64,000 nt of DNA, taken from the IMG/VR virus record IMGVR_UViG_3300034198_006385, positions 22,663-86,662 of that record; one strand, 5' to 3'. The translations under genes and the position numbers were made by a program. Below, piece after piece: positions 21,130 to 48,369 of the stretch. Within the stretch, counting starts at the first letter, position 1. Every line of letters starts with the position of its first letter. Source of the stretch: a virus. The notes beneath the pieces are model-generated. The model ran no database searches. It was not told where the DNA came from and worked only from the letters and a program-made list of their open reading frames with translations.

Positions 21130-22875
21130 ATGAGTATTGAATCTTACGAAGATTATGTAAGTGTTAAAATAATCGGAATGACTGAATCTTTTATTAAAGA
21201 TAATGTAACTGGCCAAAAATTGACACCACAAGAATTTGTGGCCTATTGTGCTAGGGTTAGTAATCCATCAAATCAGATGAATAATGACACATCAGAAAAT
21301 CTTCTTATGTATTGTATTCGTAATAAACATTGGTCGATTTTTGAAATGGTCAATATTGCCTGTGAAATTAAAACAACGCGCGATATTTCCCATCAAGCAA
21401 TTCGTCACCGAAGCCAAAATTTCCAAGAATTTTGTGTTTCTGGTGACACAAAAATTAGATTTATATTACCAAGTGTTTTAAAACGGGACGGAAATTCATC
21501 TTACACAAAAGAAATTGAACATTTATACAATAATTGGATTAAAAATTCCCATACACAAAATGTAATTAAAAATATGCATATTCGAGTATATGATGAAGTA
21601 AATAAATGTTTTACTACTTCACATATTTCTAATATATTTAAAACAGGTGTTAAACCAGTATTTAAAGTTACTTTAACTAACGAAAAAACAATTAAATGCA
21701 CGAAAGAAGAGAGATTTTTCACAAAAAATGGATTTCTTCCTTTAGAAGAAATTGTTGGTCTAACTAACAATAAAAATATGTGGTCTATGACTAATAATTG
21801 TGAAGTTGCAACCAACGGTATTCCTGTCTATCAATCATACGAATGGTTAAAAGAAGCTAAAGAAGAATCTATTATTAAAGGCTTTGGGGTTCCATATATT
21901 GCCGAAAAAGCGGGGGTGTCATATCACACAATTAGAAAATGGTTAAAAATTAATAAACTTCAATTTACAAAAAAAGAAGTTGCACAATACACCCAAATTT
22001 GGAATAAAGGGAAATTCGGATATTCTCTGCCCAAACATAAACAAGAAACTATTGAAAAAATGCGTAAAAGTGCTAAACGCGGTGCCGACTCCAATTTATG
22101 GAAAGGCGGTGTTGAGCGGTCAGAACGTTTAAAAATTGCTGATTGGTGTAATGCAAATAGATCATCATTTTTAATAAAATATAATTATACATGTAATAAA
22201 TGTAATTCTAATAAAAAATTACATCTTCATCATATAAAACCCGTATATTCACACTCAGAATTAGCATATGATTTCGACAATATTGAAGTATTATGTAAAA
22301 ATTGTCATTATGATGTTCATAATTTAAACGGAGATTATAAAATCAATAAATCAAAAAAATCTAAATTAGGTATTGAATGGACAACATTTAAGCATATTGA
22401 ATATATTGGCGAAGAAATGACTTATGATTTAGAAGTTGAACACAATTCACATAATTATGTTGCAAATAATATTTTAGTTCATAATTCTCAAAGATATGCC
22501 GACCCAACACAACTAGATAGTGGATTTGTTGTCAGAGAAGCAAGGCTTCAAGATAAAAAAAATCGTCAAAATAGTATTGATGTTGAAGATGATAAATTAC
22601 AAGAAGAATGGATTTCTCGCCAATTAAAACAAATTGATCTTGCAAAAGAAAATTATGATTGGGCAGTTGCAAATGGTATTGCAAAAGAACAAGCAAGAGT
22701 TGTGCTTCCTGAAGGATTAACCAAAACAACCTATTACATTAATGGAACTTTACGTTCCTTTATTCATTACATTCAAGTTCGCGCTGATCCGTCAACACAA
22801 AAGGAACACAGAATTATTGCAAATGCTCTACTACAAAATTTGCAACAATATTTCCCATTTTTAAATCGGGTCTAA
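21130..22875 (+). CDS. thyX: Flavin-dependent thymidylate synthase ThyX with in-frame intein, 581 aa precursor
   Basis: Residues 1-101 and 453-581 form a normal ThyX of 230 residues; residues 102-452 are an intein. The insertion splits the ThyX signature RHRx7S: the host sequence reads RHRSQNFQEF then, after the intein, SQRYA. Splicing would restore the conserved Ser. ThyX makes dTMP from dUMP using FAD, NADPH and methylene-tetrahydrofolate, feeding phage DNA synthesis with the adjacent reductase. A consensus promoter lies 37 bp upstream. No activity is expected without splicing. Confidence 0.93.
   Translation: MSIESYEDYVSVKIIGMTESFIKDNVTGQKLTPQEFVAYCARVSNPSNQMNNDTSENLLMYCIRNKHWSIFEMVNIACEIKTTRDISHQAIRHRSQNFQEFCVSGDTKIRFILPSVLKRDGNSSYTKEIEHLYNNWIKNSHTQNVIKNMHIRVYDEVNKCFTTSHISNIFKTGVKPVFKVTLTNEKTIKCTKEERFFTKNGFLPLEEIVGLTNNKNMWSMTNNCEVATNGIPVYQSYEWLKEAKEESIIKGFGVPYIAEKAGVSYHTIRKWLKINKLQFTKKEVAQYTQIWNKGKFGYSLPKHKQETIEKMRKSAKRGADSNLWKGGVERSERLKIADWCNANRSSFLIKYNYTCNKCNSNKKLHLHHIKPVYSHSELAYDFDNIEVLCKNCHYDVHNLNGDYKINKSKKSKLGIEWTTFKHIEYIGEEMTYDLEVEHNSHNYVANNILVHNSQRYADPTQLDSGFVVREARLQDKKNRQNSIDVEDDKLQEEWISRQLKQIDLAKENYDWAVANGIAKEQARVVLPEGLTKTTYYINGTLRSFIHYIQVRADPSTQKEHRIIANALLQNLQQYFPFLNRV
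21433..22485 (+). mobile_element. ThyX intein with HNH homing endonuclease, 351 aa
   Basis: Block A starts at Cys (CVSGDTKIRF), and the C-terminus is the classical Val-His-Asn followed by the extein Ser at 22486. Inside lie a helix-turn-helix (GVSYHTIRKWLK, about 22,000), a NUMOD3-like Lys/Glu repeat and an HNH domain with Cys-x2-Cys, His-His-Ile-Lys-Pro-Val and Cys-x2-Cys zinc knuckles (22190-22320). In block B the usual T-x-x-H is Thr-Lys-Glu-Glu-Arg, so the conserved His is replaced, which could slow the first splicing step. The element should home into the ThyX active-site motif of relatives. Confidence 0.9.
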
Positions 22876-44154: not shown

Positions 44155-45462
44155 GTGACTTTTTTTTATACATCTGTTGATATGGAATATAATAAAATTT
44201 TATTTCGGGGATATAAAGATGGAAAAAGAATTAAGAAGAAAGTTGAATACACACCAACTCTTTATGTAGAATGTAAAGAAAAATCTGAATTTAAGACATT
44301 GGATGGTAAATTTGTTACTCCAATGTCTTTTGAAAGTATGAAAGAATCACGAGAATTTACTAAAAAATATAAAGATGTAACTAATTTTAAAATTTATGGT
44401 AATACTAATTATCCAATTCAATTTATAAGTGATATTTGGCCAGGTCATATTAATTTTGATATGACCGTAATTGATATTGGTGCAATTGATATTGAAGTTG
44501 CTATTGGCGAGGATGGTTTTCCTCATCCCGAAAAAGCTGAACAAGAAATTATTACAATTACATATCATAGTAGCCAAGACAAAACTTATATTTGTTGGGG
44601 TATGAAAGATTATTTTGTTGAAAATAGTATTTTAAAAGATGTTAAAATTAAATATATTAAATGTCGTGATGAAGTTGATCTTCTTTTAAAATTTATGGAT
44701 TATTGGATGGGTAATTACCCAGATATTTTAACTGGATGGAATTTAGATGGATTTGATTTAGTTTATATTATTAATAGATTAAAGAAAATTTTATCAGATG
44801 ATATATCAAATAAATTTTCTCCATGGAATAAAGTAGAAGAAACAACTGATTATAATTTAAATGGTGATGAAATTCAAGCATATAATATTTCAGGTATTCA
44901 AGTTATTGATTATATGAAAGCATTTAAAAAATTCGCATACAAATATCCAAAACAAGAAAATTACAAATTAGGTAATATTGGATTTGTTGTTCTCGGTGAA
45001 GAAAAATTAGATTATTCTGAATATAAAGGATTAACTGAATTATATGAGAAAAATTTCCAGCGATTTTGTGATTATAATATCAAGGATGTTGTTCTAATTG
45101 TAAAAATGGAGGAACAATTAAATTTATTTTATCTCATTGCAACTATTGCATATATGACTAAATCTAATTTACAAGATGCTTTTAGTCCTGTAGCAAGTTG
45201 GGATAATTATATCTATAATGAATTATGTAATAGAAATATAGTTATTCCTCCTAAAGTAAAAAAAGAAAAATTACAAAAAATTGAAGGTGCATTTGTAAAG
45301 GAACCAATTGTAGGAAAATATAATTGGATTATGAGTTTTGATGCTACTAGCCTATATCCTATGTTAATGATTCAATCTAATATGTCACCCGAAACTATTA
45401 TTGATAAATTTAGTAGATATATGGAATTAAAACAAGAGGCAGAAAAAAGAGGAATTTTATGA
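44155..45462 (+). CDS. 43A: DNA polymerase gp43, N-terminal fragment (exonuclease + motif A), 435 aa
   Basis: GTG start with AAGGG in front. Exo I is Asp-Ile-Glu (about 111), Exo II 'GWNLDGFD', Exo III 'RFCDYNIKDV'. Polymerase motif A is Phe-Asp-Ala-Thr-Ser-Leu-Tyr-Pro near 401, then 'MSPETI', and the chain stops. It lacks motifs B and C, which are in the next gene. T4 gp43 (898 aa) is a single chain; the sum here (884 aa) is the same size, so this is a split polymerase. The overlap is ATGA. Confidence 0.93.
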   Translation: MTFFYTSVDMEYNKILFRGYKDGKRIKKKVEYTPTLYVECKEKSEFKTLDGKFVTPMSFESMKESREFTKKYKDVTNFKIYGNTNYPIQFISDIWPGHINFDMTVIDIGAIDIEVAIGEDGFPHPEKAEQEIITITYHSSQDKTYICWGMKDYFVENSILKDVKIKYIKCRDEVDLLLKFMDYWMGNYPDILTGWNLDGFDLVYIINRLKKILSDDISNKFSPWNKVEETTDYNLNGDEIQAYNISGIQVIDYMKAFKKFAYKYPKQENYKLGNIGFVVLGEEKLDYSEYKGLTELYEKNFQRFCDYNIKDVVLIVKMEEQLNLFYLIATIAYMTKSNLQDAFSPVASWDNYIYNELCNRNIVIPPKVKKEKLQKIEGAFVKEPIVGKYNWIMSFDATSLYPMLMIQSNMSPETIIDKFSRYMELKQEAEKRGIL

Positions 45463-46808
45463 AATTAGTGAAAGATATGACAGATGATGAAATTTTATCT
45501 GAATTAAATTTTATTGATAATGTTCGTAAATGTAATCCTGAAAATTTATTAAATGATACTTTTAATTTTGATATTCCAGTAAATTATAGTGTTACTGCAC
45601 GGGCGGAAATTTTTGATAATGATAAAGAAGGCATTTTTCCCACAATTATTCAATATGTTTTTGATTTAAGAGCCGAGACCCGTAAAGAAGAAAAAATTAT
45701 AAATCAAAAATTAGAAGATAAATCATTATCTAAAAAAGATAAAAAAGAATTAGAAAAACAAAGTATTCAGCTTTATAATAAACAACTTGCTATTAAAATT
45801 TTGTTAAATTCATTATATGGCGCAACATCTAATATGTATTTCCGTTATTATGATGAAAGAATGGCGGAATCTACTACAAGAAACGGTAGACTTACTATTA
45901 AATGGGCGGAAAAAACTATTAATAATTATTTAAATAATTTATTAAAAACAGATAAAGATTATGTTATAGCAATTGATACTGATTCTGTCTATATTGATTT
46001 TAGTAGTTTAGTTGATAAACTTTATAATAATTTAGATACAAATAAAATTGTCGATATATTAGATATTATTGCGAATGAAAAAATTTCTAATTTATTAAAT
46101 GATTCTTTTAATGAATTACGCAATAAACTTAATTCTAAACAACAAAAAATTTCAATGAAAAGAGAAGTTATTTCTGATGGTGGTATTTGGACAGGAAAAA
46201 AACATTATATTTTGAATGTTCTTGATAGTGAAGGTGTTAGATATTCAGAACCTAAATTAAAAATTGTTGGTATTGAATGTGTAAAATCATCAACTCCCAA
46301 AATTATTCGTGATATGATTAAAGATAGTATTAAAATTATTATGAATACTGATGAAGTAACTACACAAAAATATATCACAGAATGTTATGAAAAATTTAAA
46401 ACGTATGCACCAGAAGATATTGCTTTTCCGCGCGGGGTTAAAAATATTCATAAGTATACAGGAACAAGTACTTTATATACAAAAGGAACACCAATTCATG
46501 TAAGATCGGCTATATTATATAATATGTTATTAGAAAAACATGAATTAGATACCAAATATGAAAAAATTAAGTCTGGGGATAGTTTAAAATTCATATATTT
46601 AAAAACACCAAATATCATAAAAGAAAATGTAATTGGTTTTATTGAAGTATTACCAAATGAATTTAATTTACATCAATACATTGATTATGATACACAATTC
46701 GAAAAGGTTTTTGTAGCACCAATTCAATCAATTCTAGATGCTATTGGATGGGAATGGAAATCATCTAAACCAAAATTTAATTTAAATATGTTTAAAAAAG
46801 GAAAATAA
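45459..46808 (+). CDS. 43B: DNA polymerase gp43, C-terminal fragment (motifs B and C), 449 aa
   Basis: The fingers/palm half: motif B Lys-Ile-Leu-Leu-Asn-Ser-Leu-Tyr-Gly (about 120) and motif C Ala-Ile-Asp-Thr-Asp-Ser-Val-Tyr (about 170), then 'GGIWTGKKHYILNV' and 'STPKIIRDMIK' of the thumb. The first residues continue where the N fragment stops. The two should assemble, as for other split B-family polymerases. Start overlaps the preceding stop (ATGA). Confidence 0.93.
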   Translation: MKLVKDMTDDEILSELNFIDNVRKCNPENLLNDTFNFDIPVNYSVTARAEIFDNDKEGIFPTIIQYVFDLRAETRKEEKIINQKLEDKSLSKKDKKELEKQSIQLYNKQLAIKILLNSLYGATSNMYFRYYDERMAESTTRNGRLTIKWAEKTINNYLNNLLKTDKDYVIAIDTDSVYIDFSSLVDKLYNNLDTNKIVDILDIIANEKISNLLNDSFNELRNKLNSKQQKISMKREVISDGGIWTGKKHYILNVLDSEGVRYSEPKLKIVGIECVKSSTPKIIRDMIKDSIKIIMNTDEVTTQKYITECYEKFKTYAPEDIAFPRGVKNIHKYTGTSTLYTKGTPIHVRSAILYNMLLEKHELDTKYEKIKSGDSLKFIYLKTPNIIKENVIGFIEVLPNEFNLHQYIDYDTQFEKVFVAPIQSILDAIGWEWKSSKPKFNLNMFKKGK

Positions 46809-46809
46809 T

Positions 46810-47718
46810 ATGTCAGCTTTACGTGATAAATTAATTAAAAATACCAAATTAAAATATACAAGCGTATTATCCGATAGCCAAATTTTAAAAGATAATACAA
46901 TGATTGATATCGGTATTCCTGGGGTTAATCTAGCCTTATCAGCGGAATTAGATGGAGGTCTGACATCTGGTGTTACAGTTATTGCTGGGCCATCTAGACA
47001 TTTCAAATCTGGATTTGCCTTATTAATGGTTGCAGCATTTCTTCGTAAATATCAAGATGGAATTGTTCTTTTCTTTGATAGTGAATTTGGTATGCCAGAA
47101 GCATATTTTAATACATTTCAAATTGATCGAGATAAAATCATTCATATTCCAATTACAGATATTGAACAATTAAAATTTGAGTTAGTCAGTCAATTAAATG
47201 CAATTGAACGTGGTGAACATATAATGATTGTAGTGGATTCTATCGGAAATCTTTCTTCTAAAAAAGAATCTGAAGATGCTGCCAAAGGAAGTGGGGCGGC
47301 GGATATGACTAGAGCAAAAGAATTAAAAAGTTTTTATCGTATTATTACACCACATCTTAAATTAAAAAATATTCCTTTTATTGGAATTAATCATACTTAT
47401 AAAACAATGGAATTATATTCTAAAGATATAATTTCGGGGGGTTGTGTAGTTAAAGATACTGAAATTCAAACAGTTAATGGCTTAGTTAAAATTCAAGATT
47501 TAATCGAGGGGGATGTTATAATAACAAATTATGGAAATAATTCTATTTCACATGTTTGGACACCAGAAACATTAGATAATGGTTATCCAGAATGTTATGA
47601 GATAGAATTTGAAGATGGGCATACTATAATATGTTCAGAAACCCATAAATTTTTAATTAATGGTAAATGGATAGAGGCCAAAGATATTGTTACTGGAATG
47701 GATTGCCAAACAATTTAA
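46810..47718 (+). CDS. uvsX: UvsX recombinase N-extein fused to a split-intein N fragment, 302 aa
   Basis: Residues 1-211 are UvsX: Walker A 'GPSRHFKSGF' (about 57), Walker B-like 'IMIVVDSIGNLSSK', to 'KDIISGG'. From Cys at residue 212 (47443) the chain becomes intein: block A 'CVVKDTEIQTVNG' and block B 'IICSETHKFL'. It stops at TAA 47716-47718, 91 residues into the intein, the usual size of a split-intein N half. UvsX is the phage strand-exchange protein; full function needs trans-splicing with the product at 47830. Confidence 0.93.
   Translation: MSALRDKLIKNTKLKYTSVLSDSQILKDNTMIDIGIPGVNLALSAELDGGLTSGVTVIAGPSRHFKSGFALLMVAAFLRKYQDGIVLFFDSEFGMPEAYFNTFQIDRDKIIHIPITDIEQLKFELVSQLNAIERGEHIMIVVDSIGNLSSKKESEDAAKGSGAADMTRAKELKSFYRIITPHLKLKNIPFIGINHTYKTMELYSKDIISGGCVVKDTEIQTVNGLVKIQDLIEGDVIITNYGNNSISHVWTPETLDNGYPECYEIEFEDGHTIICSETHKFLINGKWIEAKDIVTGMDCQTI
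47443..47715 (+). mobile_element. Split-intein N fragment in UvsX, 91 aa
   Basis: Begins at the nucleophilic Cys at 47443. The sequence through block A and block B (with its T-x-x-H-like 'CSETHKF') resembles the N half of the gp41-1-type split inteins. It ends with a normal stop codon, so it is not a frameshift fragment. Confidence 0.85.
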
Positions 47719-47757
47719 TATCAGCAGCATAATATAATCCATGGAGAGATACATGCA

Positions 47758-47829
47758 TATATTGTGGAATTATTAGTGTAGCGGGAAATATTAAAAGATG
47801 GCACAACGAAAATTATAAAAGGAAAACAA
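47758..47829 (+). pseudogene. Remnant of a homing-endonuclease zinc finger between the uvsX halves
   Basis: A short reading frame without start encodes Tyr-Asn-Pro-Trp-Arg-Asp, then Cys-Ile-Tyr-Cys-Gly, and Arg-Trp-His with Asn-Tyr-Lys. This C-x2-C-G ... N-x-x-R-W-H-x-x-(N/C) pattern is the zinc-finger end of phage homing endonucleases. It is preceded in frame by a stop. It suggests that an endonuclease gene once lay inside the intein and decayed, leaving the break. Confidence 0.6.
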
Positions 47830-47946
47830 ATGAAAATTAAAAATATTAAAAAAGTTGGTAAATTACCTGTTTATGATATAACAGTAAATAGTGACAATTA
47901 TGATGAACAGCATTATGTTTTAAAAAATAACGTCATAACACATAAT
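47830..47946 (+). mobile_element. Split-intein C fragment in UvsX, 39 aa
   Basis: Thirty-nine residues with the C-intein pattern: a Lys-rich start, 'LPVYDITV' (block F) and the terminal Ile-Thr-His-Asn (block G), followed by Thr as +1 residue. It has the size of a natural split-intein C half. Confidence 0.88.
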
Positions 47947-48369
47947 ACTGGTGGGTATTATTCCGCCGATACAATGTGGATTATTGGTCGCCAACAAGAA
48001 AAAGATGATGATGAATTATCAGGATATAAATTTATTATTAATATTGAAAAATCTCGTTTTGTTAAAGAAAAATCTAAAATTCCCATCATTGTAAAATTTG
48101 AAAAAGGAATTGATAAATGGTCTGGATTATTTGATATCGCACTTGAAGGAGGCTTCATTGCAAAAGCCAATCAAGGATGGTATAATGAGATTGACCAAGA
48201 AACAGGAGAAATTATTGGTGTAAAACGTCGCCGGGGTGATTTAGAAAATGATGATGAATTTTGGGCACGAACAATTACACCAAAATTTAAAGAATATGTT
48301 AAAGAAACATATTCAATTTCTAGTGGTCATATTTTAGATGAAGAACAAGAACAAACTGAAAGCGAGTAA
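47830..48369 (+). CDS. uvsX: Split-intein C fragment fused to UvsX C-extein, 179 aa
   Basis: ATG 47830 has AAAAGGAAAACAA in front, so this half is translated on its own. Residues 1-39 are an intein C half, from 'MKIKNIKKVGKLPVYDI' to Thr-His-Asn at 47944-47946. The C-extein starts with Thr at 47947: 'TGGYYSADTMWIIGRQQ', continuing UvsX from the GG that ends the N-extein. Ligation gives a 351-residue UvsX (T4: 391). Confidence 0.93.
   Translation: MKIKNIKKVGKLPVYDITVNSDNYDEQHYVLKNNVITHNTGGYYSADTMWIIGRQQEKDDDELSGYKFIINIEKSRFVKEKSKIPIIVKFEKGIDKWSGLFDIALEGGFIAKANQGWYNEIDQETGEIIGVKRRRGDLENDDEFWARTITPKFKEYVKETYSISSGHILDEEQEQTESE

What the first reader, a model, noticed from the sequence alone, without database searches (positions are those of the whole stretch)
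46810..48369. Natural split intein in UvsX recombinase
The recombinase is encoded by two separate genes. The first ends with a 91-residue intein N half and a true stop; the second begins with its own ribosome-binding site and a 39-residue intein C half. The insertion splits the conserved Gly-Gly/Thr-Gly junction just before 'SADT', so unspliced products should be inactive. The halves resemble fast-splicing gp41-1-type split inteins.
Basis: partly seen in the sequence, partly recalled or inferred. Interest (0 to 1): 0.85.

Follow-up and report, generated by a model that had tools for sequence, protein, structure and literature searches.

The report
Split intein in phage UvsX recombinase
This T4-like phage makes its DNA-recombination protein UvsX as two separate pieces that a self-splicing protein element (a split intein) should join together; many related phages carry the same element, and here the selfish DNA-cutting gene that normally sits between the two pieces has withered to a short remnant.

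Summary
UvsX is encoded by two ORFs (46810-47718 and 47830-48369). The first ends in a 91-aa intein N half, the second starts with a 39-aa intein C half. Both intein ends pass NCBIfam cut-offs, all splicing residues are present, and the naturally fused homologue models as a Hint fold closest to the gp41-1 intein. Two in-frame stops separate the halves, and a second contig is identical over 6,906 nt, so a sequencing error is very unlikely. Trans-splicing itself is inferred.

The element is not unique: 73 distinct UvsX inteins at this site turned up, and at least 25 deposited phage records carry it, not named as a split intein where I looked. Usually a free-standing homing endonuclease gene lies between the halves, the published 'fractured gene' arrangement.

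It is one of 18 eroded cases; nine others are contiguous. One contiguous intein differs from a split twin (408/411 nt identical) by a 30-nt deletion, the old ribosome site and start codon still inside. New member of a known kind, within an informative series.

The parts
46810..47442 (+). UvsX N-extein (211 aa, ends ...IISGG)
   Evidence: PHROG 97/8337, RecA Pfam; aligns with T4 UvsX 3io5
47443..47715 (+). intein N half, IntN (91 aa: Cys1, block B SETH)
   Evidence: TIGR01445 over cut-off; gp41-1 6qaz E 1.5e-7; C1 in 73/73 and S-x-x-H in all homologues
47716..47718 (+). stop codon of first chain (TAA)
   Evidence: sequence; homologous IntN chains end at or near the same residue
47745..47825 (+). 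remnant of homing-endonuclease C-terminal Cys/His motif, RDTCIYCGIISVAGNIKRWHNENYKRK, last Cys changed to Tyr
   Evidence: 77.8% identity to the L130 endonuclease, 49.3 bits versus 28.1 for the best of 300 shuffles; 74% to L015
47779..47781 (+). second stop (TAG) in the frame shared by both halves
47820..47823 (+). Shine-Dalgarno AGGA, 6 nt before the start of the C half, inside the endonuclease remnant
   Evidence: sequence; 52 of 60 split homologues keep an SD-like motif
47830..47946 (+). intein C half, IntC (39 aa, ends ...VITHN)
   Evidence: TIGR01443 over cut-off; HN in 69/69 readable homologues
47947..48366 (+). UvsX C-extein (140 aa, +1 Thr, TGGYYSADT...)
   Evidence: T4_UVSX_C Pfam 1.1e-7; +1 is Thr in 67 and Ser in 2 homologues

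Best explanation
A class 1 natural split intein sits in the phage's UvsX (RecA-like) recombinase, at the start of the DNA-binding L2 loop. Two proteins are made from one mRNA: UvsX-N fused to IntN, and IntC fused to UvsX-C, each with its own start. The intein halves associate, fold as one Hint domain, and splice in trans (Cys1 thioester, transfer to Thr+1, Asn cyclisation) to give a 351-aa UvsX. It descends from a mobile unit in which a free-standing homing endonuclease gene lay between the halves and spread the unit into empty uvsX genes. Here that gene has been deleted down to about 27 codons. The remnant probably persists because it holds the ribosome-binding site of the C half, and the intein persists because only exact removal would restore UvsX. 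Shown: anatomy, homology, exact site, remnant, mobile relatives. Inferred: splicing, need for it, endonuclease activity, reason for retention.
For: Intein-end profiles over cut-off. Best PDB sequence match gp41-1 intein. The naturally contiguous homologue L031 (IntN 53% identical to the window's) models at pLDDT 83.5, and Foldseek's top hit is gp41-1 (TM 0.83/0.87, rmsd 1.7). Conserved catalytic residues in 73 distinct homologues, all at one site. Intein-less UvsX genes are uninterrupted at the same codon. Pair L018/L064: same phage with and without the 1,113-bp unit, flanks 100% over 2,297 bp and 99.1% over 2,148 bp. Endonuclease genes with NUMOD3 plus GIY-YIG or HNH domains between halves in relatives. 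Remnant in the window. Eleven of 18 short-gap loci keep the same R[W]H...CK end.
Against: No splicing data. The AlphaFold model is of a relative, not of the two window chains, and only one of its five models was confident. The model of the whole precursor failed (pLDDT 57.7). The window's closest UvsX relative (L046) lacks the intein. One alternative not ruled out is that the two chains assemble without splicing, as split phage enzymes can.
Confidence: 0.93

Rival explanations
1. The two chains act as a two-subunit UvsX held together by the Hint halves, without splicing, as reported for the split NrdA of phage Aeh1 and the split gp43 of phage 25 (PMC2988022).
For: Split phage enzymes can work as two polypeptides; this phage also has a split DNA polymerase.
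Against: Every splicing residue is kept across all homologues, which simple assembly would not require; the insertion lies in the DNA-binding loop, where about 130 extra residues should disturb filament formation (inference).
Confidence: 0.04
2. One contiguous intein-containing gene broken by a sequencing error or pseudogenised.
For: The two ORFs share a frame.
Against: Two in-frame stops, a second identical contig, both halves otherwise intact, an SD for the C half, and dozens of relatives split at the same place with an endonuclease gene between.
Confidence: 0.01
3. The 111-nt gap is unrelated filler or an untranslated regulatory spacer, not an endonuclease relic.
For: It has no open frame and carries the SD of the C half.
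Against: 27 residues 74-78% identical to endonuclease C-termini at the same position in relatives, 49 bits against 28 for the best shuffle; the same end in ten other short-gap loci.
Confidence: 0.04

Closest known systems
UvsX split inteins of deposited T4-like phages (PspYZU05, Thanatos-1, HY03, Pm5461, TG1, VmeM-32, EniLVp02)
   Same: Same host gene, same insertion codon, same split point, about 45-52% identical over the first chain and 44-54% over the second.
   Different: They keep an endonuclease gene (GIY-YIG type where named) between the halves; their records call the halves separate recombination or hypothetical proteins, one noting a HintC domain.
'Fractured genes' of Dassa et al. 2009 (doi 10.1093/nar/gkp095; title and citation only, text not held)
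   Same: A conserved enzyme gene broken by a split intein with a free-standing endonuclease gene between (my recollection of that paper).
   Different: The endonuclease is reduced to a 27-codon relic in this window; I recall helicase, reductase and IMPDH host genes there but could not check whether UvsX was listed.
gp41-1 split intein (PDB 6qaz, 6riz)
   Same: Best sequence match in the PDB (E 1.5e-7) and best fold match of the homologue (TM 0.83).
   Different: Different host gene and only about 28% identity over the modelled domain; splicing speed unknown here.
T4 UvsX (PDB 3io5)
   Same: Extein homologue, E 8.7e-101.
   Different: Single uninterrupted chain.

Membership tests
Class 1 intein | Cys or Ser as first residue | tested here: met
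   Cys1 at 47443; C in 73 of 73 homologues
Class 1 intein | Block B T/S-x-x-H | tested here: met
   SETH; S-x-x-H in all homologues
Class 1 intein | C-terminal His-Asn and +1 Cys/Ser/Thr | tested here: met
   HN|T in the window; HN in 69/69, +1 Thr 67 and Ser 2
Class 1 intein | Hint fold | tested here: met
   Model of the contiguous homologue L031, Foldseek top hits all inteins; not modelled for the window chains themselves
Natural split intein | Halves on two separately translated chains | tested here: met
   Two stops, own start and SD, second contig identical
Natural split intein | Trans-splicing activity | not testable with these tools
   Needs expression of both chains
Fractured-gene arrangement | Free-standing homing endonuclease gene between the intein halves | tested here: not met
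   Only a 27-residue remnant in the window; intact genes in 42 of 69 homologues by gap size, domains checked in ten
gp41-1-type intein | Closest sequence and fold to gp41-1 | tested here: met
gp41-1-type intein | Very fast splicing | not testable with these tools
   No kinetics available
T4-like UvsX recombinase | RecA core with UvsX C-terminal domain | tested here: met

The most novel reading that the evidence does not exclude
UvsX split inteins of T4-like phages cycle: a mobile unit (IntN, endonuclease, IntC) invades, the endonuclease is repeatedly eroded, and some split inteins are then healed back into one contiguous intein by small deletions that leave the old ribosome site and start codon as coding fossils. 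The window is the eroded, still-split stage. Splitness would then be a reversible state driven by the endonuclease, not an end point.
Probability: 0.75. Interest if true: 0.65.

Novelty: new member of a known kind. Interest (0 to 1): 0.5.

Why it matters
UvsX drives T4-type recombination and recombination-dependent replication, so its production would depend on two chains meeting and splicing. The relatives give a rare set of intermediates (empty, endonuclease-bearing, eroded, contiguous) at one codon, which makes the origin and fate of split inteins testable. About 70 homologous split pairs with a conserved junction are also a source of new trans-splicing tools. In public phage records the two halves are named as separate proteins, so UvsX is misannotated there.

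Tried and rejected
Genome-contig scan found no relatives. AlphaFold of the whole contiguous precursor was too poor to use. MAFFT of intein halves mixed with the contiguous intein misplaced the N halves, so only N halves were aligned for the model. Late-promoter check: TATAAATA precedes the endonuclease in many relatives but is absent in the window gap. Recoding of the in-frame stops: rejected from stop usage. L131, the nearest intein in a weakly supported tree, has an endonuclease without the same C-terminal motif, so it is not the source of the remnant. Literature: ten searches of the open library found no paper on a UvsX split intein; the key 2009 paper is not held, so absence of prior description is not established.

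Full report
OBSERVATION. The window is part of an 86,662-bp IMG/VR virus record. Spliced, the exteins give 351 residues matching T4 UvsX (3io5, E 8.7e-101), with the junction inside the motif GGGTGPMYSADT of T4. Both intein ends pass their curated cut-offs in the whole-record search; in the protein scan the C end just misses... the value was 16.4 bits against 15.6, so it also passes. The two frames are the same, interrupted by TAA and TAG. A second contig is identical over 6,906 nt with no mismatch, though it may come from the same study, so it is not fully independent.

WHAT IT IS. tblastn shows 35 deposited phage records in which one place covers at least 80% of the N chain; 25 listed rows cover 96-100%. 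Seven loci were opened; in all of them a second recombinase-like ORF with the intein C half follows, with a gene between the halves, two annotated GIY-YIG, one 'HintC' for the C half. Three scans of IMG/VR brought the total to 73 distinct UvsX inteins at the same codon. All have Cys1 and S-x-x-H; the 69 with a readable C end have HN, followed by Thr (67) or Ser (2). Intein-less UvsX genes are continuous at that codon.

THE MOBILE UNIT. Of the 69, 42 have a gap of at least 300 nt, 18 a shorter one, and 9 are contiguous. Of ten gap genes scanned, most carry NUMOD3 with HNH or GIY-YIG signals, several of these below Pfam cut-offs. L075 has a different nuclease-like gene; my impression of a Vsr-type fold is not supported by a profile match. 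Loci L018 and L064 are near-identical phages with and without the 1,113-bp unit: left flank 100% over 2,297 bp, right flank 99.1% over 2,148 bp. This is an empty-site pair and shows recent gain or loss. On the UvsX tree, intein presence needs at least 9 changes.

THE WINDOW'S GAP. In another frame the 111 nt read RDTCIYCGIISVAGNIKRWHNENYKRK. This matches the C-terminal Cys/His motif of the endonucleases at the same place in relatives: 74% with L015, 78% with L130, 49.3 bits against 28.1 for the best of 300 shuffled gaps. The final Cys is Tyr and a stop lies just upstream, so the gene is dead. Eleven of 18 short-gap loci (the window included) keep such an end. In this window the SD of the C half lies inside the remnant, and in L127 and L148 the last endonuclease codons overlap the IntC start. 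Retention of the SD is my explanation for why this end survives deletion; it is an inference.

HEALED INTEINS. L096 is split by 36 nt. L092, L093 and L094 are contiguous and their intein is 408/411 nt identical to that of L096, while the UvsX flanks are only about 75% identical. The difference is one 30-nt deletion that removes the stop and joins the frames; GAGGAAATT-ATG, formerly SD and start, is now read as E-E-I-M. The deleted stretch begins AAGATTCAGAAT, as do endonuclease leaders in L018, L028 and L160, so loss rather than insertion is the better direction. L031 reads SHNENCKNK in another frame across its joint, resembling the endonuclease end in L127. L114 and L156 also keep Met at the old start. 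The L092 and L093 inteins are identical over 420 nt in flanks 75% alike, so an endonuclease-free intein moved between phages by some means.

FOLD. AlphaFold of the contiguous L031 intein (IntN 53% identical to the window's) reached pLDDT 83.5; only one of five models did so. Foldseek ranks gp41-1 first (TM 0.83/0.87, rmsd 1.7). This supports a complete Hint domain when the halves meet.

LIMITS. Splicing, endonuclease activity and the need for splicing are inferred. The open library gave no prior report of a UvsX split intein, but the 2009 fractured-gene paper could not be read, so I do not claim first description. Class counts by gap size are approximate: a gap of 300 nt or more was taken as an endonuclease gene.

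VERDICT.

Noticed in passing
window 21130-22875: ThyX (thymidylate synthase) ORF of 581 aa with a second, contiguous intein (Pfam Intein_splicing 3.6e-15) that contains an HNH domain (4.2e-6).
   Followed up: partly
window 44155-46808: Family B DNA polymerase split into two ORFs that overlap by 4 nt (44155-45462 and 45459-46808); the intein-less relative L046 has the same split, so it is not tied to the intein. No intein signal was found there.
   Followed up: partly
L012 5030-5234 (also L013): Group I intron (Rfam RF00028, 103.8 bits) inserted about two codons after the intein site in uvsX, so intein and intron share one conserved target.
   Followed up: partly
L092, L093, L094 versus L096: Contiguous and split forms of one intein (408/411 nt) in flanks about 75% identical: healing by a 30-nt deletion, and spread of an endonuclease-free intein.
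   Followed up: yes
L018 versus L064: Near-identical phages with and without the whole split-intein unit (empty-site pair).
   Followed up: yes
between IntN and endonuclease in L001, L005, L009, L011-L014, L018, L023, L024, L027-L029, L044: T4-type late promoter motif TATAAATA precedes the endonuclease gene; absent from the window gap.
   Followed up: partly
L046 3616-3660: Closest UvsX relative of the window is intein-less and has Asn, not Thr, at the +1 position, which would not support splicing.
   Followed up: no
L075 3970-5550: A different, larger gene (DUF7487, 527 aa) lies between the halves of the most divergent UvsX split intein; possibly another nuclease family.
   Followed up: no
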